From: a virus
Reading direction: 5' to 3' (one strand)
Virus record (IMG/VR): IMGVR_UViG_3300031521_000039
Location: 1 to 64,000 of that record
DNA: 64,000 nt
Under the pieces are notes generated by a model that saw only the letters and a list, made by a program, of their open reading frames with translations, had not been told where the DNA came from and did no database searches. Both the position numbers and the translations under genes were made by a program. How positions within the stretch are numbered: position 1 is the first letter of the stretch; each line of letters starts with the position of its first letter. Of the stretch, positions 830 through 63,759 are shown piece by piece.

Positions 830-998
830 GTTGTTTTAATCGCCTCCCTTGATGTCTAGTATTTAGGATGGCAATTATAATTATAACATTAGATGGTATT
901 TGAATACAAGAAAATGTTATAATTTACAAATTTATTGTATTAATATACTTCTTATAAATGAATAATAAACAATTTCAATAAATTAATAGAAATATGTA

Positions 999-1027
999 TT
1001 GACTTTTAAATTTGATGGTAGTAATAT
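999..1027 (+). promoter_or_regulatory. promoter of the antirepressor transcript
   Basis: TTGACT (999-1004) and TAATAT (1022-1027) are spaced 17 nt apart. The start near 1034 would give a leader of about 240 nt before the antirepressor ATG, carrying hairpins and two tiny ORFs. Confidence 0.6.
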
Positions 1028-1118
1028 GTAATTAAGGAAACCAACAAATTAATAGAATAAAGACAATACATAAATTATAAACTATATACTGCAATGATAC
1101 TATTCCTTTGGTATCAAA

Positions 1119-1253
1119 TTTATTAGTGAATACATAAGGAGTAATTTATGACTAAGGGTAGCTCCCTTGGTCGGATTATTCTAACTAATAAAAATATAAA
1201 AGGAAAGTAGTATGATTGGAATATATATGGAAACATATGTATTCACTAATAAA
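1119..1253 (+). promoter_or_regulatory. structured leader: 18-bp inverted repeat around an inner hairpin
   Basis: The 18-nt arms TTTATTAGTGAATACATA (1119-1136) and its exact complement (1236-1253) could close a large stem just upstream of the antirepressor ribosome binding site AGGAGG (1262-1267). Inside is a nine-pair hairpin, GACTAAGGG (1150-1158) with CCCTTGGTC (1164-1172). A shorter stem, TGATAC/GTATCA (1095-1116), precedes it. No T-run follows, so control of translation or a protein-binding site is more likely than termination. Confidence 0.55.
1148..1210 (+). CDS. leader peptide 1 upstream of the antirepressor
   Basis: The 20-codon frame begins MTKGSSLGRIILTNKN and has a strong ribosome binding site (AAGGAG, six nt before ATG). 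Its start lies between the arms of the 18-bp inverted repeat, and the inner hairpin lies within its first codons. It ends two bases before the next small frame. It is probably regulatory rather than a functional product. No homologue is recognised. Confidence 0.4.
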   Translation: MTKGSSLGRIILTNKNIKGK

Positions 1254-1283
1254 CAAATTAAAAGGAGGTTTTCTATATGGTAG
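1212..1283 (+). CDS. leader peptide 2, overlapping the antirepressor start
   Basis: The 23-codon frame is preceded by AAAAGGAAAG and starts at ATG 1212. It runs through the right arm of the inverted repeat and through the antirepressor ribosome binding site, and stops at TAG 1281-1283, inside the start region of the next gene (ATG 1277). Ribosomes translating it would open the leader stem and deliver to the antirepressor start, a typical coupling arrangement. The interpretation is inference. Confidence 0.35.
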   Translation: MIGIYMETYVFTNKQIKRRFSIW

Positions 1284-2257
1284 AAAACAAAATTATCAAA
1301 CTATTTACAGGTGAAAAGGTACAAACAAAGGAAAGAGAATATACAAGGATTATGGGTGGATTTGGTGACAATAAACCAATATTTACAATATGGCAAGCTA
1401 GTGAATTATTAGGATTAAAAACTGGTAAAGCAGTAGAAAATTTTAATAATAATTCTAGTAAATTTGAAGAAGAATTAGATTTTATAGACTTAAAATCCGC
1501 TATCCATGGTAAGGACAGCGAAACAAAATCAAGTGTTACCAACGTTTTAAAGGACATAGGATATTCTCAAAATAAATTAAATGCAACTGATAAATGGTTG
1601 GGATTTAGTTTTAGTGGAATTATGAAAATGGTTAAAATTGCAAAGTCAAAAGAATCTTGGAATATTTATGACGAATTTTTAGAAGATTATTTTCAAACAA
1701 AAGCTGAAAATATTGTTATGGAAAAGACATTGCAAGAAAGCAAAGAAACTTTCATAGAAGAACGAAAATACATATTAGGTAGTGTGTTGTTTGAAACTAA
1801 TACAGTCAAGAAAATGGAACTATTGGAGCGAGATAAAGCATTAGAAGAACAAATTAAACAAATAGATATTACTTTAGCAAAAGAACAATTAATGGAACAA
1901 TTACAAGATAGTTTAGCTATAGCAGATAGATTTACTAATAGTAATAAATTATATGATGTGGGTGAATTTAGTAAGATATTAGATATAAAAGGATTTGGAC
2001 GTAACAAATTATTTGAATGGATGAGAGATGGTAAAATATTAAGAGCAAATAATGAACCATATCAAAATCAAGTAGATATGAATCATTTTAAAGTTATTCC
2101 AATAGAAGGAAACAAATTCTGTGATAGTAAGACATTAATTAAATCACAAGGAATTTCATACATAATTAAGAAGTTAATTAAAGACGGGAAAATTGAATCT
2201 AAATCTTATGAAGATATCATAAAGAACATTGATGAGAATTTAAAAGTAGCTAATTAA
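1277..2257 (+). CDS. phage antirepressor with KilA-C domain
   Basis: The 326-residue protein is a DNA-binding antirepressor candidate. Residues about 30-140 form an ORF6N/Rha-like N-terminal module, with sequence such as FTIWQASELLGLKTGKA. Residues about 145-215 are a charged coiled coil. Residues about 220-325 match the KilA-C/ANT type (LYDVGEFSKILDIKGFGRN, LFEWMRDGKIL, NEPYQ). Antirepressors of this class counteract the lysogenic repressor. A repressor-like HTH gene faces it immediately downstream on the other strand, which fits. The ATG has AGGAGG nine nt upstream. The long structured leader suggests post-transcriptional control. Confidence 0.85.
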   Translation: MVENKIIKLFTGEKVQTKEREYTRIMGGFGDNKPIFTIWQASELLGLKTGKAVENFNNNSSKFEEELDFIDLKSAIHGKDSETKSSVTNVLKDIGYSQNKLNATDKWLGFSFSGIMKMVKIAKSKESWNIYDEFLEDYFQTKAENIVMEKTLQESKETFIEERKYILGSVLFETNTVKKMELLERDKALEEQIKQIDITLAKEQLMEQLQDSLAIADRFTNSNKLYDVGEFSKILDIKGFGRNKLFEWMRDGKILRANNEPYQNQVDMNHFKVIPIEGNKFCDSKTLIKSQGISYIIKKLIKDGKIESKSYEDIIKNIDENLKVAN

Positions 2258-7170: not shown

Positions 7171-9224
7171 ATGGCAGAATATAAAAATAGTATTCGTTTA
7201 GGAATTGCTTTAGAAAATGAAAAAGATGTTAATGGAAGACTACAAACTTTAATAAATACGTTAGAAAAAAATAAAATAAATTTAGATATAAATATTGAAA
7301 ATTCAGATGTTGCTAAACAATTAGAAGCATTGACTAATTTGGCAAATAATTTTAAAAATAGTTTAGGTGGAAAAGTATCATTAGGGAATATTAATGAAAT
7401 AATAAATCAAACCGTTGTACAGGCAGAAAAGTTAAATGGAGAATTACAAAAAGTTTCTAGAACCGATTTAGGAAATGGTCTGTATAAACAAACTGAGTTA
7501 GTAGCAACAGGACTTGGAGAAATTACTAAACAAACTGGAACTGTTCAAAAAATAGGGGATGAATTTAATTATACAGGAAGTGCTGTTCGTACGGCTACAT
7601 CAGATTTAGTCGGATATGATAATGCTTTATTAAAAATAGAAAAAGCACAATCATCGTTATCTAGTTTAAAGTTAGTAGACCAAAATAAAGTTTCGAATTT
7701 ATCAAGCAACTTAAATGCTAATGATATAGGTTCTAATAATGAACTAAAAAATCTATTGAATCAAGTTAAAGAGTTAGAGAATGAAGAAAAGAAGTTACAA
7801 CAAATACAAACCCAAGCATATTCAGAAATGGCTGTTTTGCAAAAAGAAGAATACTCACTTAAACAAAATCTAATTACCGCTGATGGTACTTATAAAAGTG
7901 AATTAGAATCTAGACTTGTGACAGTTAATCAATTAAAATCCGCACAACAACAAAATATACAGGATAATAATTTAACCAATCAGCAAAAAGAACTTGAGTT
8001 AACAAATCAACAAGTTAAATTACAAGAACAACTAAATCAAGCTAGAGCTAAACAGACAGATGTAAGTAATTCTAATGATTTAAAAACTCTTCAACAAGAA
8101 CAAGAATTATTACAAAAACAAGAACAAGCATATCAACAAATTAATGTATTGAAAGCTAATGGTGTTATTAATACATCTGAAATAAGCAAGCTTCAAGAAT
8201 TAGTACGAAGTGCATCATCAATAAAAGAAATAAATAGTGCATTAAGTTCTATAGGCACATCTACAAGTAGAGAAAGTTCTATTAGCACATTAACTAAGCA
8301 AATACAAGAAGCACAAGTAAAATTGGAGCAAATGAAATCTACGTTTGGCTCGAAATTACCTAGTGGTTTTATTTCGTCTACAGAAGCTGAATTAAATAAA
8401 CTATTAGCAGATTTAAAACAAGTAGATGGTACTAATTTTACAGGAATAAAGAATAGTTTAAATTCTGTAAATTCTAGTATGAAGCAAACAACAAGTGAAA
8501 CTCAACAATTAGTTAGTTCATTAAACCAAGCTGGTGGAAGTTCATTTTTTAGTAGTATGAGTAATTTTTTAGGAAAAATCGGAGTGTTTTATGGAGTTCA
8601 ACAAGTAGTTCAAGAAATAACAAGTCAGCTTAAAAGTGCTGGTGAATATACTTTAGTAATGGATAAGGCATTCACAAATATGCAAATGATAACAGGAAAG
8701 TCAAAATCTGAAATCGGTAGTTTAGTAAATGATTATAAACAACTAGGAGAACAATTACATACTACAAATGTAGAGATGATGGGTGGGATGGAAGAAATCA
8801 CAAGAGCAGGTATTCAAGGAGATGAAGGAAAATCACTTATGTCTTCTGCAATTATCGGTTCTAAAATTTCTGGACAAACCACTGAACAAACAACGCAACA
8901 ATTAATTGCTATTAAAAATGCTTTTGATATGACTGGTCAAAGTATGCAAAATGTTGTTGATATGATAAGTAAGATGGATAACGTGAGTGCATCGAGTTTT
9001 GCAGAAATTTCTACAGCTATACAAAGAACAGCATTCAGTGCTCAGGAGGCAGGAACTCCATTATCTAACTTAATCGCATATATTACGACTGTATCCGAGA
9101 AAACGCGTAAATCAGCTTCAACTATAGGCGAGAGTTTTAAAACAATCTACTCAAGATATAGTAATATCAAACTTGGGAACTTAGATGATGATGGGAAAAA
9201 TATTAATGATACCGAACTTGCCAT
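7171..9224 (+). CDS. tape measure protein, exon 1
   Basis: Exon 1 encodes residues 1-684 and two bases of codon 685. Together with exon 2 (9513-13404) it gives an uninterrupted 1,981-residue tape measure protein, which sets tail length and takes part in DNA ejection. The N-terminal part is Gln- and Ser-rich coiled coil. From about residue 500 it has the conserved phage tape measure region (TNMQMITGKSKSEIGSLVNDY, AFDMTGQSMQNVVDMISKM, SAQEAGTPLSNLIAYITTVSEKTR). Without splicing, translation runs on to a stop at 9265-9267 and gives a 698-residue product. AAAGGAGAG precedes the start. Confidence 0.9.
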
Positions 9225-9512
9225 AAACTACAACTTGTGGCTTAATGGAGTAATCCATTTCGAATAACTCGCTTAATACGGGGAAGGCTAAATCTTTAAA
9301 AAGACATGCTAACCTACCGTGCTAAATTATTCTATATAAATAAATTATAGAATATAAAAGCCTAACGACTATTCCTTCGGGAAGTACGCATAAGTATGCG
9401 GAAATGGTGAGTCTCCTATTTAGGAGAGTGATATAGTCTAATCTTATGGGAAATCATAAGCAGTTCATTAGAGAACGGTATAGGAGTTAACGAACCTATA
9501 TGAATATAAATG
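9225..9512 (+). ncRNA. ORF-less group I intron (IA2-like, td-type) in the tape measure gene
   Basis: The 288-nt insertion has the core of phage group I introns. Exon end GCCAU (9220-9224) pairs with internal guide GUGGC to form P1 with the required U-G pair at the splice site. The words ACGGGGAA and CCGTGCTAAATT match the td-type P3/P4 region. P7 is GACTAT (9367-9372) with ATAGTC (9433-9438). Hairpins CGCATA-AG-TATGCG, CTCCT-ATTT-AGGAG and CTTATG-GGAAAT-CATAAG follow. The 3' end is the omega G of AATG (9512). Excision restores the frame and gives ...NDTELA-M-NRIGIAIR... It contains no endonuclease ORF. Confidence 0.9.
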
Positions 9513-12500
9513 GAATAGAATCGGTATTGCAATTAGAACAAACAAAGGACAGTTTAAAGAATTTGATGTAGTTCTAAATGAATTCATGAATAAATTTAAG
9601 AGTGGTCAACTCAGTCAAGTTGATTATTTAGCAGGTGTACAAGCATTAGCTGGCACACGTCAACGAGAGACTTTAATGAGTTTAATGGAGAATATAGACG
9701 ACTTAAACGTACATCAGAAAGAAGTAGCTGAATCAGCTGGAATGTCTAAGAAAATGATGGATGAAGCTTATAATGGAAGTTTAGATGCTAAAGTAAATGA
9801 CTTAAAAAGAGCTTTTGAAGGATTATATGAAAAAATAATGTCTTCAGACTCTTTAAAATGGCTAATTACAGAAGCAACACAATTAGTAACTGCAATAGCA
9901 AATGTTGATGGAAAAACAATAGCATTTATAGGAACAATTGGACTTACTACAGTCGCTATATCTAAATTGGTAACTATGAATAAAATTTTAATGACAGAAC
10001 AGGCGGGAAATGGTCTTGCAACAGGTTTCTCGCATTTAATAGGAATATTAACTGGTATGACTCCACTCATGGGTACTACAACAGTAGCCACGCAAGCACT
10101 TGTTGGTGTTCAAGCAGAAGCAACTTTAGCAACCGAAGCCCTCACAATGGCAGAAGCACGTGCATTATTAGCAACCGAAGCATTGACAGTAGCACAAGAA
10201 GGACAAGCAACAAGTGCATTTGCAATAGGAGTAGCAGAAGCTGAAGTTATGCTTGCGACTGATGCATTAACTATAGCACAAGGAGAAGCAGTAATTGCCA
10301 CAGAAGCACTTGCAGTAGCCGAAGCTGAAGTAGTTATTGAATCAGCGGGATTGACTGGTGTTTCAGGTGCATGGGCATTAGTTACTGGAGGTATTGAAAG
10401 TGCAGTAGTTGCTTCATTATCATTTATGATGACTCCTATTGGATTGGTTATTGGTGCACTTGCTATAACTATAGGTATAGCAGGAAAAGCTTTTTATGAC
10501 TATAAACAACATGAAGCAGAAGTTGAAAAGCAATCAAAGTCACTTAAAGATGCAATAAATGGTGTAAATGAAGCTATAAAAAATGGAGATACAAAAGGAG
10601 CTTCTGATAAACTAGATAAACTTGCGGAATCAGAAAAAAAATATCAAGATGCATTAGAAAAGAAAAAGAAAATCGAAGCTGAAATCACCAAAGTACAGGA
10701 GGATATGACAAACAATCCTTTCAATGGTGAAGGAGATTTACAAGTATTAAATGTTTTACAAAGTGAACTTGAAGATGTGACCAAAGAATTAAATACTCAA
10801 GATGAAGCATTTAAGAAAGCAGGACTTAGTGCAGAAGATTATGCTAATATACAACAAAGTGTAGCTGATGCGAAAGTTGTTGATACAATAAAAGAGCAAA
10901 CCAAAGCACAATTAGAAAGTAGAGAAAATCTTGAAGGGGCTAAAAAAGAATATCAAGATTTTATAACTACGACTCAAGATTTATACACTGAATATCAAAA
11001 TTTATCATCACAAGAAAATTTATCAGCAGAACAAAAGACACAATTAATGTCAGTAACTGAACAATTACAATCTAAATTCACCGATTTAAATATTTCAGTA
11101 GACGAAAATGGTAAAGCACATATCGAAAACACTCCATTAATTGAAGAAAACATTTCATATTTATCTAGTGAAGGAATGACCGTAGAAACATTAACCAGTG
11201 TTCGTTTAGCAGATAGTAAGGCTTGTAGTGAATGGTCTGTAAATAATCAAAACATGACTTATACAGAAGTTATGAATAATATTGAGAATTATAAAACTGA
11301 AATTGAAGCTTTAGGTAAATTGGCAGAAGCTAGAAATGCTAATGCAAGTAACCCAGGTTTTATCGGACCAATTCAAGATACTGATTATGATAGTCAAATA
11401 AAAGATGCTACTGATAAAGAAAAGGCATTAGAAAGTGCTAAAACTAAAATTGATAGTATATATGGCTCTATAAAAGCACCAATTAATAATGCCAAATCAG
11501 GTGGAGTATCTGATGGTGGAAATTATATGCCTTCTGGTGGAGGAAAAGAAAAGAAAGCAAAAGAAGTAAAAGACTATACAGATGATATTGCTAAACTTAA
11601 ATCCACAGATGATATTGACAGATATGCTGACGTTAATAGTGGATTAACTTTAGTAAATAATTCTTTAAAAGAGAATAAATTATTACAGGACGCAACTACT
11701 GGTACAGAACATCAAAATGCGTTAAAACAAGAATTAGTATTATACGAACAAAAAAGAACTGCTATAATGAAGATTGTTGACGAACAAAAAAAAGATATGG
11801 AAGAAAGAAAAACGGCATTACAACAATCTGGGTTTGAATTTGATGCGAATGGAAAACTACTTAATGGAAGACAAAAATTATTGGAATTACAACAACAGGC
11901 TAATGCTATGGGTGGGAATACTGAGGCTGAAAAAACTGCTAAGGAAGATGCGATAAAAAATGTCAAGGATTTAATTAGTAATACAAAGGAATATACAGAT
12001 TTAGTTAATACTAAGATTCCAGAAAATATAAGTCAATGGGAAGAGTTAGCTAATACTATTAAAAAGACTCAACAAGAAACAGTATCTAAGCTTAGAGATG
12101 AGTTAGTTGATGATTTAAAAAGTCAATATGAAGAAGATAAAGATGCTGAATTATCTAAGTTAGATGAAGTTTATAAGGCTGATAAAGATAGATTAGAAAA
12201 AGAATACAAAACTGATTCTGAGAATCTTAAGAAACGTAAAGAGTCTGAAATAGATTTCTATCAACAACAAATTGATAAGTTACAGAAAGAACTTGACGAT
12301 ATTGATAATGATTCAGTTGAGAAAAAAACTAAATTAGCAAAGCTTCAAGCCGAATTAAAATTGTGGCAAGCTGACACATCTGTTTTTAGCAAAAAGAAAC
12401 AAGAAGATTTATCTACTGAGATTTCAAAATTGCAAAAAGACATTAAAAAAGATGATTTAAAGAATCAAATTGAGGCTTTGAAGAAAGAACAAGATGCTAA

Positions 12501-13404
12501 AAAAACAACACAAGATACAGAATTAGATGATTTAAAGACTAGCAATGATAAAGAAAAAGATGAGATAGAAACAAAATATAACAAGCAAAAACAAGTCGCT
12601 GAAGATAAATATAAAGAAATGTTAAAAGATAAGAATTTATATGTTAAAGCTAATGAAATGATGACAAAAAACCAACAAGAACAAATGATTGAATTGCTTA
12701 AAAAGTATGACACTTCATATAAAGATGTTGGATTAATGTTATCAAAGAGTCTTACCGATCCATTTTTAGAACGCATAAAAGCAGTACAAGAAGCTATGAA
12801 AGGATTGGGCATTGCTAATATAGGTGATTCAAATGGTTCATCATATACTACTAGTCAAAAATCAAGTGTAGCAGATAAATTTACCAATAAAACTTCAAGT
12901 GGAACTAATTATTATTATGATGGTAATAATATAATATCCGATGCATATATACCAGATGAAGAAAGACAAAAGATATTAGACAATATAGCTGGATATGATA
13001 CTGGTGGCAGAACTCCAAGTAATATATCTAACAAAGGTGTACTAGGTATACTTCACAAAGATGAAAAGATATTAAATGCAGAAGAAACAAAACAAACAGA
13101 TAAAAATACTGAAATGATTAGTGGAATATATGCCTATATCACTTCAACAAGTGGAGCATTAATATCACAATTATCTAGTCAGTATTCAAATCCTAGTAAT
13201 TATTCATTGCCAAGTCTAGTAGGAACTAATTTAAATGGAATTGCTAGTAATGTTACAAATACTTCAAGTAATGTATCACAACCAATTAATATAAACTTTG
13301 GAGACATTATTAATCATAATGGTGCAGAAGCCAATATGAATATGGATAAAATAATTAAAACAGTAAAAAAATCAATTAAAGAAGACGGAAGACTATACAG
13401 ATAA
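9513..13404 (+). CDS. tape measure protein, exon 2
   Basis: Exon 2 supplies the last base of codon 685 and residues 686-1981. It begins NRIGIAIRTNKGQFKEFD, the usual continuation of tape measure proteins. An Ala-rich block with four copies of a LATEALT-like motif lies at DNA 10125-10340. A hydrophobic stretch (about residues 975-1015) follows. Long Lys/Glu coiled coils run from about 12050 to 12700. The C-terminus is a Ser/Asn-rich tail. The first ATG after the intron, at 9586, is not the true start. Confidence 0.9.
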
Positions 13405-22720: not shown

Positions 22721-23746
22721 TTGAAAGAAGATGATGTGTTAGTGGATAATAAATTAACAGATATAGAAGTGCAAGAATTAATTAAACAATATCCAATAGG
22801 TGTACTAGATAGTCCAATAGATGAAAGAGATTATCTATACGAACCTACTTGTGCAACCCAGCAAGAATTACCTAGTTCATTTTCATTAGACTATAATTAT
22901 CCTATTCTTAATCAAGGTCAAATAGGTAGTTGTGTAGCACATAGTATTGCAGAAATGAAATCATATATTAATGCAGTAGATAATACTAATATATATTCGG
23001 TTGGATTTATATATGCTAATAGAAAAGAAGATGACTTTAGTGGAAATGGATTAATTCCTAGACAAGCTTTATCTAATATCGTATTAGATGGAGATTGTTT
23101 AAATAGTGATTTCCCAATTAATGAAGAATATCCTAGTATATTAAGTACTTTAGATAGATATAACAAAGAACAACTTTTTGAGAAAGCAAGTAAACATAGA
23201 AGTAAAGCATTTGCGAAATTAGAAGTAGAACAAATTAAAGAATATTTAGTTAATCAACAAAAACCTATTTTAATTACTGTAAAAGTATATAGTAGTTTTT
23301 ATCAATCAAGATATGAAAAAGGAATAGTACGAGATGAAACTTATGGAACTTATTTTGGTTCACATGCAATGGTGATTATAGGTTATGATAGTGACACTTT
23401 AAAGATACTAAATAGTTGGGGTGACTTTGGTGATAATGGGTATATTTATTTAAATATCAATAATCCAATTATTAAAGAATTATGGGTATTGGAAGATGAA
23501 AAAATCATTAAGCCAGTTAAGAAGACTTATTGGAGAGTACAAGTTTCAGCTAATAAATTAAAAGAATCAGCAATTGAGGATTGTAATAAATTAGCTACAT
23601 ATGGCATAGATACTTGTCCAGTATTAGTTAATGGATGGTGGAAAGTTCAATGTGGATGTTTTACTAATGAGGAAAATAGGGACAATATTACTAAGAAGTT
23701 AGAAGATTTAGGATATGTAGTTTATATTGAAAAAGTTGAAAAATAA
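22721..23746 (+). CDS. papain-like (C1A) cysteine peptidase with C-terminal SPOR-like domain
   Basis: The 341-residue protein has the catalytic Cys in NQGQIGSCVAHS (about residue 68), His in FGSHAMVIIGYD (about 215) and Asn in ILNSWGDFGDNGY (about 230). The C-terminal 75 residues (YWRVQVSANKLKESA, NGWWKVQCGCFTNEE, LGYVVYIEKV) look like a SPOR peptidoglycan-binding module. No signal peptide is seen. It lies directly before the amidase, which suggests a role in lysis or in cleaving cell-wall proteins. TTG 22721 and GTG 22736 are both possible starts. Confidence 0.8.
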   Translation: MKEDDVLVDNKLTDIEVQELIKQYPIGVLDSPIDERDYLYEPTCATQQELPSSFSLDYNYPILNQGQIGSCVAHSIAEMKSYINAVDNTNIYSVGFIYANRKEDDFSGNGLIPRQALSNIVLDGDCLNSDFPINEEYPSILSTLDRYNKEQLFEKASKHRSKAFAKLEVEQIKEYLVNQQKPILITVKVYSSFYQSRYEKGIVRDETYGTYFGSHAMVIIGYDSDTLKILNSWGDFGDNGYIYLNINNPIIKELWVLEDEKIIKPVKKTYWRVQVSANKLKESAIEDCNKLATYGIDTCPVLVNGWWKVQCGCFTNEENRDNITKKLEDLGYVVYIEKVEK

Positions 23747-26710: not shown

Positions 26711-26742
26711 ATAAATTAAAAATAAAAGGAGTGTATTTAATT

Positions 26743-27861
26743 ATGCAAAATAAGATAATTGATTGTGGAATATATAAAATTATAAATAAGACAAATGGTA
26801 AACTTTATGTCGGTAGTAGTAAACATATTCATCAAAGATGGGACGAACATAAAGAAATGTTAGTAAATAATAGACATCATTCTATAAAACTTCAAAGAGC
26901 GTGGAATAAGTATGGCAAAGATAATTTTAAGTTTGATATAATTCAAGAGTGTAAAGAAAGTGAATTACTAGATGTTGAGCAAAGATGGATAGATGAATTA
27001 GATTCATTTAAAAATGGTTATAACTGTACCAATGATACAAAAAATCCATTTAAAGAATATGATAAAACCAATAAAGAAGAAACCTTGGAAAAGTATCATA
27101 ATATATTACTAGAAATGAAGCAAGGAATTTACTTAATAATTACTGAAAAAGCATATTATGAAAGAATGTTAGAAAAAACAAATAAGAAAACATATGACTA
27201 TAAAAGAATAGCCACTATTATGTATTGGTTTAAAACTAATTTTGATATTACTAAATATATTTTATATATAGATATTAAGGGTAAAAAGACAACAAATATA
27301 AATATACAAATATGGGATATGAAACAAAACAAATGTTTATATGATTACATAGAAAAAACTAAAACAATATATTATATAGGAACTGTATTAAAAGGAAGAA
27401 GTGAAATAATAGACAATACATTTAAAATTGATAAAGAAAATCCATTTTATAAATATAATTACATAGGAAAAACCTTTATCTTAGACATGGACAATATAAC
27501 TTATTTAGCAAAAGATGATGTCAAATTATATTTTGAGTATATTTATAATAGAAATGCTTGTGAGTTGCATTTTAAAAGTAGCAAAGCTGGAAAAGTTACA
27601 TTTGATGACGAAATAAGAATGGAGTATACAAATTATATTGATATATTAAAAACTATTTATATAGAACAATATAAAAATGTAAAAATTATAATAAACGAAA
27701 TATTACAAAATTTATATAATATTGTTTTAGATAAGAACCAAATAAAATCCGTAGAACAAAATTTAAAAAAATATAAAATATATGGGGAGTTAAAGAGTAT
27801 CTGCAAAGAATACAATTATAAATATAAAACATCAAAAGGCACTATTGTTATCTATAATTAA
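26743..27861 (+). CDS. GIY-YIG endonuclease-like protein
   Basis: The 372-residue protein has an N-terminal GIY-YIG domain: CGIYKIINKTNGKLYVGSS, then QRWDEHKEML, HHSIKLQRAWNKYGKDNFKF and LDVEQRWID (residues 5-90). The catalytic Arg and Glu positions are filled. The remaining 280 residues are lysine-rich and unfamiliar, with no NUMOD motif seen. It is probably a homing endonuclease or mobile nuclease. It starts at ATG 26743, 11 nt after AAAAGGAG. Confidence 0.75.
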   Translation: MQNKIIDCGIYKIINKTNGKLYVGSSKHIHQRWDEHKEMLVNNRHHSIKLQRAWNKYGKDNFKFDIIQECKESELLDVEQRWIDELDSFKNGYNCTNDTKNPFKEYDKTNKEETLEKYHNILLEMKQGIYLIITEKAYYERMLEKTNKKTYDYKRIATIMYWFKTNFDITKYILYIDIKGKKTTNINIQIWDMKQNKCLYDYIEKTKTIYYIGTVLKGRSEIIDNTFKIDKENPFYKYNYIGKTFILDMDNITYLAKDDVKLYFEYIYNRNACELHFKSSKAGKVTFDDEIRMEYTNYIDILKTIYIEQYKNVKIIINEILQNLYNIVLDKNQIKSVEQNLKKYKIYGELKSICKEYNYKYKTSKGTIVIYN

Positions 27862-62895: not shown

Positions 62896-63759
62896 TTATT
62901 TTTTAATCATAGTTATAGCTTTTTCTGTTTCATTTGCAATCTCTACTGTGTTATTAGCAAGTTCTTGAACCGCTGAACTAGTTTGTTCCATACATGCACT
63001 TACTGAAATCATTCCATCATTTATTCCTTCTATACGTGATATTCTAAGTACATTACTTTCTTTGAGTTTCTTACTATTTTCTTTACCTGTTTCAGTTTTT
63101 TTAAGAATAATATTAGCTGTAACTTGTAAGTCTTCTACAATTTTACTAATCATTGTACTTGAGTTTTTAGTTTCTTCTGCAAGTTTTTTAACTTCATTAG
63201 CTACAACTGCAAACCCTTTGCCAGCATCTCCTGCTCTTGCAGACTCTATACTTGCATTTAGCGATAAAAGATTAGTTTGATTAGCTATTTCTTTGATTAC
63301 ATTTGTTATTTTAGAAATATCTTTCATTTTTACATATAATTCATTTGCATTATTATAGTTGTCAACATTATCATTATGGAATACTTCCATAATTCCACTA
63401 TTATTTTTTGCACTCTCATATGCAAGATTAACTTCTGAAGTAATATGAACTATATTTGATGTTACTTCTTGTATAGTAGCACTTATTTCTTCAACTGAAC
63501 CTGCTTGACCGGTAATAGTATTGTTGATAGTTTCTATTTCTGTAAGTATATTTTTACCTACTTTATTTGTTGATTTTTTATATTCTTCGAATTCTTTATC
63601 TTTACTAATTAAAGTTGTATGTAGTTCTTTATTTTTTAATTCTAGTTCTTTGATTTTATTATCACTTTCTAGTTTAAGTGTTTTTAACTTGTTGTCCATT
63701 TCCTTTTCTAAAGATTCTCTTAGTTCTTGTAGTCCTTTTGTATTTTTAAATATTTTCAT
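62896..63759 (-). CDS. soluble methyl-accepting chemotaxis-like signalling protein
   Basis: The 287-residue protein has a coiled coil (about 10-65) and the MCP signalling hairpin ([46 protein letters not shown]). No transmembrane or HAMP domain is seen. The hairpin is the part that binds CheA/CheW, so it could interfere with host chemotaxis or signalling. The start (GAGAGTG) overlaps the stop of a 25-codon frame. Confidence 0.8.

What the first reader, a model, noticed from the sequence alone, without database searches (positions are those of the whole stretch)
9225..9512. ORF-less 288-nt group I intron splits the tape measure gene
Two large frames of one tape measure protein are separated by a segment with td-like group I hallmarks: P1 (GCCAU with GUGGC, U-G at the cut), CCGTGCTAAATT, P7 GACTAT/ATAGTC and a terminal AATG. 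Splicing after 9224 and 9512 restores a 1,981-residue protein with the junction TELA-M-NRIGIAIR. Introns in phage tape measure genes are uncommon, and this one is short and carries no endonuclease.
Basis: partly seen in the sequence, partly recalled or inferred. Interest (0 to 1): 0.75.

Follow-up and report, generated by a model that had tools for sequence, protein, structure and literature searches.

The report
Roving group I intron in phage gene

Summary
[quoted passage not shown] It splits the tape measure gene into 7171-9224 and 9513-13404; joined, these give 1,981 residues. A relative without an intron here reads GGCCAT^GAACAGAATCGG through the predicted junction. Five diverged copies show strong compensatory change (20 of 76 pairs changed on both sides; 1-2 when partners are slid).

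Tape measure introns are not rare: phage ICP1 has three proven by RT-PCR, a C. difficile phage-plasmid carries two group I matches, and this phage lineage shows at least five insertion sites in one 370-nt stretch. The intron's main interest is also not its location. It belongs to an ORF-less family at three sites: tape measure codon 685 (window, L004), codon 652 (L014), and a tyrosine recombinase gene (5 contigs). The recombinase copy is 97.2% identical to the window's, though the flanks share only CCAT.

That is good circumstantial evidence for recent ectopic transposition of a minimal intron. The mechanism (reverse splicing, endonuclease in trans, or another route) is unproven, and direction is unresolved. 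Splicing is inferred, not shown.

The parts
7171..9224 (+). Exon 1 of the tape measure gene (684 codons plus 2 bases; last bases GCCAT)
   Evidence: Pfam PF10145 and several tape-measure PHROGs; in-frame join to exon 2
9225..9512 (+). ORF-less group I intron, 288 nt, starts AAAC, ends AAATG (omega G at 9512)
   Evidence: RF00028 67.2 bits; orthologue L004 3645-3929; intronless relative L002; covariation
9513..13404 (+). Exon 2 of the tape measure gene, begins GAATAGAATCGG
   Evidence: Tape-measure PHROGs; join gives 1,981 aa
9220..9241 (+). P1: GCCAU (9220-9224) with guide sequence GUGGC (9237-9241), U-G at 5' splice site
   Evidence: Sequence; CCAU/GUGG invariant in all five copies, the fifth pair only in the TMP-685 copies
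9268..9411 (+). P3: CUCGCU (9268-9273) with GGUGAG (9406-9411)
   Evidence: 100% of cells paired across five copies
9278..9320 (+). P4: ACGGGG (9278-9283) with CC (9313-9314) and CCGU (9317-9320)
   Evidence: RF00028 alignment; invariant
9367..9438 (+). P7, guanosine-binding helix: GACUAU (9367-9372) with AUAGUC (9433-9438); P7.1 and P7.2 hairpins lie between P7 and P3
   Evidence: RF00028 alignment; P7 invariant, P7.2 has 4 of 5 pairs with double changes
9443..9500 (+). P9 (9443-9460), P9.1 (9463-9476), P9.2 (9479-9500)
   Evidence: Pair counts; P9.2 has 4 of 6 pairs with double changes

Best explanation
9225-9512 is a minimal, self-splicing group I intron (most like subgroup IA) in the tape measure mRNA. 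The guide sequence GUGGC pairs with exon GCCAU. Guanosine bound at P7 cuts after U9224, the freed exon attacks after G9512, and the joined mRNA encodes a 1,981-residue tape measure protein. The intron belongs to a small ORF-less family that has moved, recently and without an endonuclease of its own, between at least three sites in related large phages: tape measure codons 685 and 652, and a tyrosine recombinase gene, each time right after CCAT. Shown: the conserved ribozyme fold, the empty allele, and the same intron in different genes. Inferred: that it splices, and how it moved. Reverse splicing guided by GUGG, followed by cDNA recombination, is one candidate; cutting by an endonuclease in trans is the other.
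For: RF00028 67.2 bits. Covariation over five copies: 97.9% of cells paired, 20 pairs changed on both sides, against 9.2 in shuffles and 1-2 when slid. Empty allele in L002, GGCCAT^GAACAGAATCGG, giving TETAMNRIGIAIR against TELAMNRIGIAIR here. Empty in L009 too. Orthologous intron at the same site in L004, 90.7% identical, where the exons are 78-84%. 97.2% identity to the recombinase-gene intron in L015 (identical in L019, L020, L021) and 95.8% to L016's. Its removal restores a Phage_integrase domain reading YLNH-KDVSTTLAFYQK. The window's TMP is only about 58% identical to that of the same phage contig as L019 (L009). Flanks share only CCAT: 7/30 and 4/30 identity in register, no BLAST match.
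Against: No RNA data. P10 is weak at this site (G-U, A-U, then A-C mismatch) but three Watson-Crick pairs at the recombinase and codon-652 sites. No reverse transcriptase was found in eight related records, so the reverse-splicing route would have to borrow one. The records are fragments of uncultured phages.
Confidence: 0.93

Rival explanations
1. The intron is a degenerate homing intron that lost its endonuclease gene. Each site was reached when an ancestor had an endonuclease, or by a free-standing endonuclease cutting in trans (collaborative homing), with no RNA-level transposition.
For: Collaborative homing is described for phages (PMC3984707; PMC10448857). A GIY-YIG protein is encoded at 26731-27861 in this window, and G005, the codon-652 carrier, has one with an equally long frame. 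A more distant intron with the same CCAT^AAAC start carries an ORF in the thyX-like gene of L055.
Against: No family member at any of the three sites carries an ORF. The G003, G004, G006 and G007 carriers have no GIY-YIG match and, apart from one below-cut-off match in G004, no HNH_3 match. The flanks have no shared sequence beyond CCAT for a homing endonuclease to recognise.
Confidence: 0.4
2. The intron moved by reverse splicing into a new mRNA at CCAU, reverse transcription and recombination.
For: The shared target is exactly the P1 complement (CCAU with GUGG), within the 4-6 nt expected for reverse splicing (PMC3984707). The flanks are otherwise unrelated. Near-identical ORF-less copies lie in two genes.
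Against: CCAU would be required for splicing whatever the route, so it does not discriminate. No reverse transcriptase was found in the records. [quoted passage not shown]
Confidence: 0.35
3. It is a transposase-moved derivative of an IStron (a group I intron joined to an IS200/IS605 element), mobilised in trans.
For: A short fixed target (CCAT) and unrelated sites are what IS200/IS605-type insertion would also give. IStrons exist in Clostridia (established knowledge; IStron reference).
Against: No Y1 transposase in G000, G003, G004, G005, G006 or G007; only G001, which lacks this intron, has it. No transposase remnant is seen in the intron.
Confidence: 0.07
4. There is no intron: the gene is broken, or the two frames are separate proteins.
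For: Each half is a long frame by itself, and no RNA data exist.
Against: RF00028 match and covariation; the exact empty allele in L002; the same insert kept at higher identity than the exons in L004. The exon 2 frame has no start until 9586, which would drop the conserved NRIGIAIR stretch.
Confidence: 0.02

Closest known systems
ICP1 tape measure introns (Vibrio phage; PMC10448857)
   Same: Introns interrupt a tape measure gene; splicing restores the frame; HEG content of the introns varies and can be nil
   Different: Four exons with three introns and HNH-3 endonucleases; proven by RNA-seq and RT-PCR; no reported copy in another gene that I found
td-like / subgroup IA phage group I introns (T4 td, Twort, SPO1)
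   Same: P1 with U-G, P3-P7 core, P7.1/P7.2 hairpins, omega G
   Different: Here the whole intron is 288 nt with no ORF. td carries I-TevI (established knowledge)
BAKA/Optimus and LittleE introns of Cluster J mycobacteriophages (PMC3706429)
   Same: A 265-bp ORF-less group I intron in a tail gene shares a 98%-identical 156-bp segment with an intron in a capsid gene of a related phage: a similar two-gene distribution
   Different: There the shared part is only the 5' end and one copy carries an endonuclease gene; here whole introns match at 97% and neither carries one
rDNA group I introns at multiple sites (Bhattacharya et al. 2005, PMC1299323)
   Same: Related introns at different sites, taken as circumstantial evidence of reverse splicing
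   Different: There in fungal nuclear rRNA genes; here in phage protein-coding genes at 97% identity
C. difficile CD161 plasmid (NZ_CP029155) tape measure gene
   Same: Two RF00028 matches (84.9 and 50.7 bits) between two annotated tape-measure CDS
   Different: Tape measure not clearly related by BLAST; two neighbouring introns; only the 3' part resembles this one (75% over 109 nt)

Membership tests
Group I intron (RF00028) | Covariance-model score above gathering cut-off | tested here: met
   67.2 against 50 bits, full model length 1-253
Group I intron (RF00028) | P3-P7 pseudoknotted core and P4-P6, supported by covariation | tested here: met
   All pairs of P3, P4, P6, P7 kept in five copies; P3 varies on one side; double changes in the peripheral P2, P5a, P6a, P7.2, P8, P9 and P9.2. 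The core helices themselves hardly vary
Group I intron (RF00028) | U at end of exon 1 in a U-G pair of P1; G at intron end; exons join in frame | tested here: met
Group I intron (RF00028) | P10 pairing with exon 2 | tested here: inconclusive
   Two contiguous pairs (one wobble) at this site; three at the sister sites
Group I intron (RF00028) | Guanosine-dependent splicing | not testable with these tools
   Needs RNA
Subgroup IA (td-like) | P7.1/P7.2 between P7 and P3 | tested here: met
   Both hairpins lie between the P7 5' strand and the P3 3' strand; P7.2 has 4 of 5 double-changed pairs. No subgroup-specific model (IA1 against IA2) was run
Mobile homing intron | Encodes a homing endonuclease | tested here: not met
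   No ORF in any of the family's copies
IStron | Carries, or co-occurs with, an IS200/IS605 TnpA | tested here: not met
   No PF01797 in any carrier record; the records are partial

The most novel reading that the evidence does not exclude
A minimal, endonuclease-free group I intron spreads between unrelated phage genes by RNA-level transposition (reverse splicing at CCAU guided by GUGG), making these phages a natural system for a route that has had only circumstantial support.
Probability: 0.33. Interest if true: 0.8.

Novelty: new member of a known kind. Interest (0 to 1): 0.55.

Why it matters
The intron itself is ordinary for phages. Its distribution is not: the same ORF-less element at 97% identity in a tape measure gene and a tyrosine recombinase gene, with four shared flanking bases, is a recent natural case of ectopic group I intron movement in protein-coding genes. 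A 2014 review (PMC3984707) says reverse-splicing mobility has no direct experimental evidence, the best circumstantial cases being rDNA introns. Both intron-bearing and empty tape measure alleles are now in hand, so the competing routes can be tested on short synthetic RNAs. It also shows that default whole-window Rfam scans can miss such introns, leaving split tail genes misannotated.

Tried and rejected
The whole-window Rfam scan at gathering threshold found nothing; a narrow scan and the genome search found the intron. A combined Rfam scan of L002-L004 also found nothing although L004 carries the orthologue. The genome-contig scan with the tape measure alignment gave no relative, so the host is unknown. 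IS200/IS605-driven movement: judged unlikely. Reverse transcriptase in the records: none. The tree of the intron copies did not resolve direction: bootstrap 22-55, long outgroup branch. P10 fits the recombinase site better while P1 fits the tape measure site better, so direction is left open. The 5' splice site of the second L004 intron (near codon 734) could not be fixed by eye. A broader DNA pattern found no HEG-bearing family member in viral contigs.

Full report
OBSERVATION. The sequence at 9225-9512 is as described. Exon 1 (7171-9224) and exon 2 (9513-13404) join in frame to 1,981 residues with TELA-M-NRIGIAIR at the junction. Exon 1 carries PhageMin_Tail and both exons match tape-measure PHROGs. 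A narrow Rfam scan gives RF00028 at 9220-9460, 67.2 bits against a cut-off of 50, E 1.8e-16. The same library at default filters over 64 kb reports nothing. The 85,197-nt viral record has no second match.

JUNCTION. The decisive comparison is with relatives. L002 (identical to L003 over the 4,586 nt they share) has an intact frame at this site, DTETAMNRIGIAIRNNKGQF, with DNA GGCCAT^GAACAGAATCGG: the predicted ligated junction. L009 and its near-identical contigs are also uninterrupted here, with GGCAAT instead of GCCAT. L004 (196-kb contig) has an orthologous intron at the same position, 285 nt, 90.7% identical by global alignment, while its flanking exons are 78-84% identical.

STRUCTURE. With a td-like secondary structure placed on five distinct copies, 97.9% of 374 cells pair. 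20 of 76 pairs have changes on both sides (shuffles 9.2, none of 500 as high; slid controls 1-2). The double changes fall in P2, P5a, P6a, P7.2, P8, P9 and P9.2; P3, P4, P6 and P7 are kept throughout. CCAU/GUGG of P1 is invariant. The fifth P1 pair (G-C) exists only at the codon-685 site. A single-strand fold gives z = -2.6.

THE SAME INTRON ELSEWHERE. Scanning IMG/VR with a conserved 22-base core found seven stretches, one being L014's own contig and one L004's. The other five (L015, L016, L019, L020, L021) hold the intron in a different gene. Its removal restores a tyrosine recombinase (Phage_integrase, E 4.8e-21)...HCVRKTASNSMLSKGIDPSLVSKYLNH-KDVSTTLAFYQK, so the likely catalytic tyrosine lies in exon 2 (inference from the family motif). 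The recombinase intron is 97.2% identical to the window's in L015 (identical in L019, L020, L021) and 95.8% in L016, although the recombinase exons of L015 and L016 are only 65-78% identical. RF00028 scores the G004 recombinase copy at 61.8 bits. L014 has a third version, 78.4% identical by global alignment, in the tape measure gene at about codon 652 (RF00028 69.2 bits). In register with the splice sites, window and recombinase flanks match at 7 of 30 (upstream) and 4 of 30 (downstream) positions, with a run of four (CCAT) upstream and none downstream. L019 and L009 lie on one 218-kb contig: that phage has the intron in its recombinase gene and lacks it at tape measure codon 685, while its tape measure protein is about 58% identical to the window's there. 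Vertical descent cannot explain 97% identity in another gene; recent ectopic movement, probably between co-infecting phages, can (inference).

HOW IT MOVED. Two routes are left open. Reverse splicing needs four to six bases complementary to the guide sequence (PMC3984707), which is what the sites share. But CCAU would be needed for splicing anyway, and no reverse transcriptase was found in eight records. Endonuclease in trans is known for ORF-less phage introns. This window and G005 have a GIY-YIG gene with equally long frames, but the other carriers do not. IS200/IS605-type movement is unlikely. A tree did not resolve direction. P10 is three pairs at the recombinase and codon-652 sites but only G-U, A-U here, which weakly suggests that the codon-685 copy is not at its home site; P1 points the other way.

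TAPE MEASURE GENE AS A HOT SPOT. Within the lineage, insertions occur at about residues 611 (L002, with an ORF bearing NUMOD1 and a GIY-YIG-like start by eye), 652 (L014), 666 (L009 group, RF00028 38.3 bits, below cut-off), 685 (window, L004) and 734 (L004, with a 373-residue ORF). The C. difficile CD161 plasmid has two RF00028 matches between two tape-measure CDS. ICP1's tape measure transcript has four exons and three introns, proven by RT-PCR, and that paper calls the gene frequently interrupted (PMC10448857). Phages with about 18 group I introns per genome are reported (PMC12363816). So a tape measure intron is not in itself surprising.

VERDICT. Its unusual feature is the near-identical, endonuclease-free copy in an unrelated gene. 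Splicing, host and mode of movement are untested.

Noticed in passing
L015 1880-2168 (- strand), L016 2853-3143, L019 675-963: The same ORF-less intron sits in a tyrosine recombinase gene just before the likely catalytic tyrosine; without splicing the recombinase would lack it.
   Followed up: yes
L056 (NZ_CP029155.1 record positions about 74841-75388): C. difficile plasmid/phage tape measure gene is annotated as two CDS with two group I intron matches (50.7 and 84.9 bits) between them; no intron annotated. Exon 2 resumes before an ALQRSASMLSSAG motif that resembles the codon-611 insertion region of L002.
   Followed up: partly
L002 1766-3000: A 1.2-kb insertion at tape measure residue 611 with a 292-residue ORF (NUMOD1; GIY-YIG-like N-terminus by eye) and group I style ends.
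   Followed up: partly
L004 4077-5692: A second insertion in the L004 tape measure gene at about residue 734, with P7-like segments and a 373-residue ORF of unknown family; its 5' splice site is unclear.
   Followed up: partly
L055 about 980-2000 (reverse complement): ORF-bearing intron with the same CCAT^AAAC...GTGG start in a thyX-like gene of a Negativicutes MAG; a possible distant relative with an endonuclease.
   Followed up: partly
window 26731-27861: Free-standing GIY-YIG protein (PF01541, E 8.7e-14); the codon-652 intron carrier G005 encodes a GIY-YIG protein in an equally long frame.
   Followed up: partly
window 62896-63759: Methyl-accepting chemotaxis signalling domain (E 3.2e-32) encoded by the phage record; unusual cargo for a phage.
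   Followed up: no
window 22721-23746: Papain-family cysteine protease with a possible SPOR domain, downstream of tail and choline-binding-repeat proteins; perhaps a lysis or entry enzyme.
   Followed up: no
G001 (contig of L002) 15442, 68481, 93081, 225651: Four equally scoring IS200-type Y1 transposases on the 229-kb viral contig.
   Followed up: no
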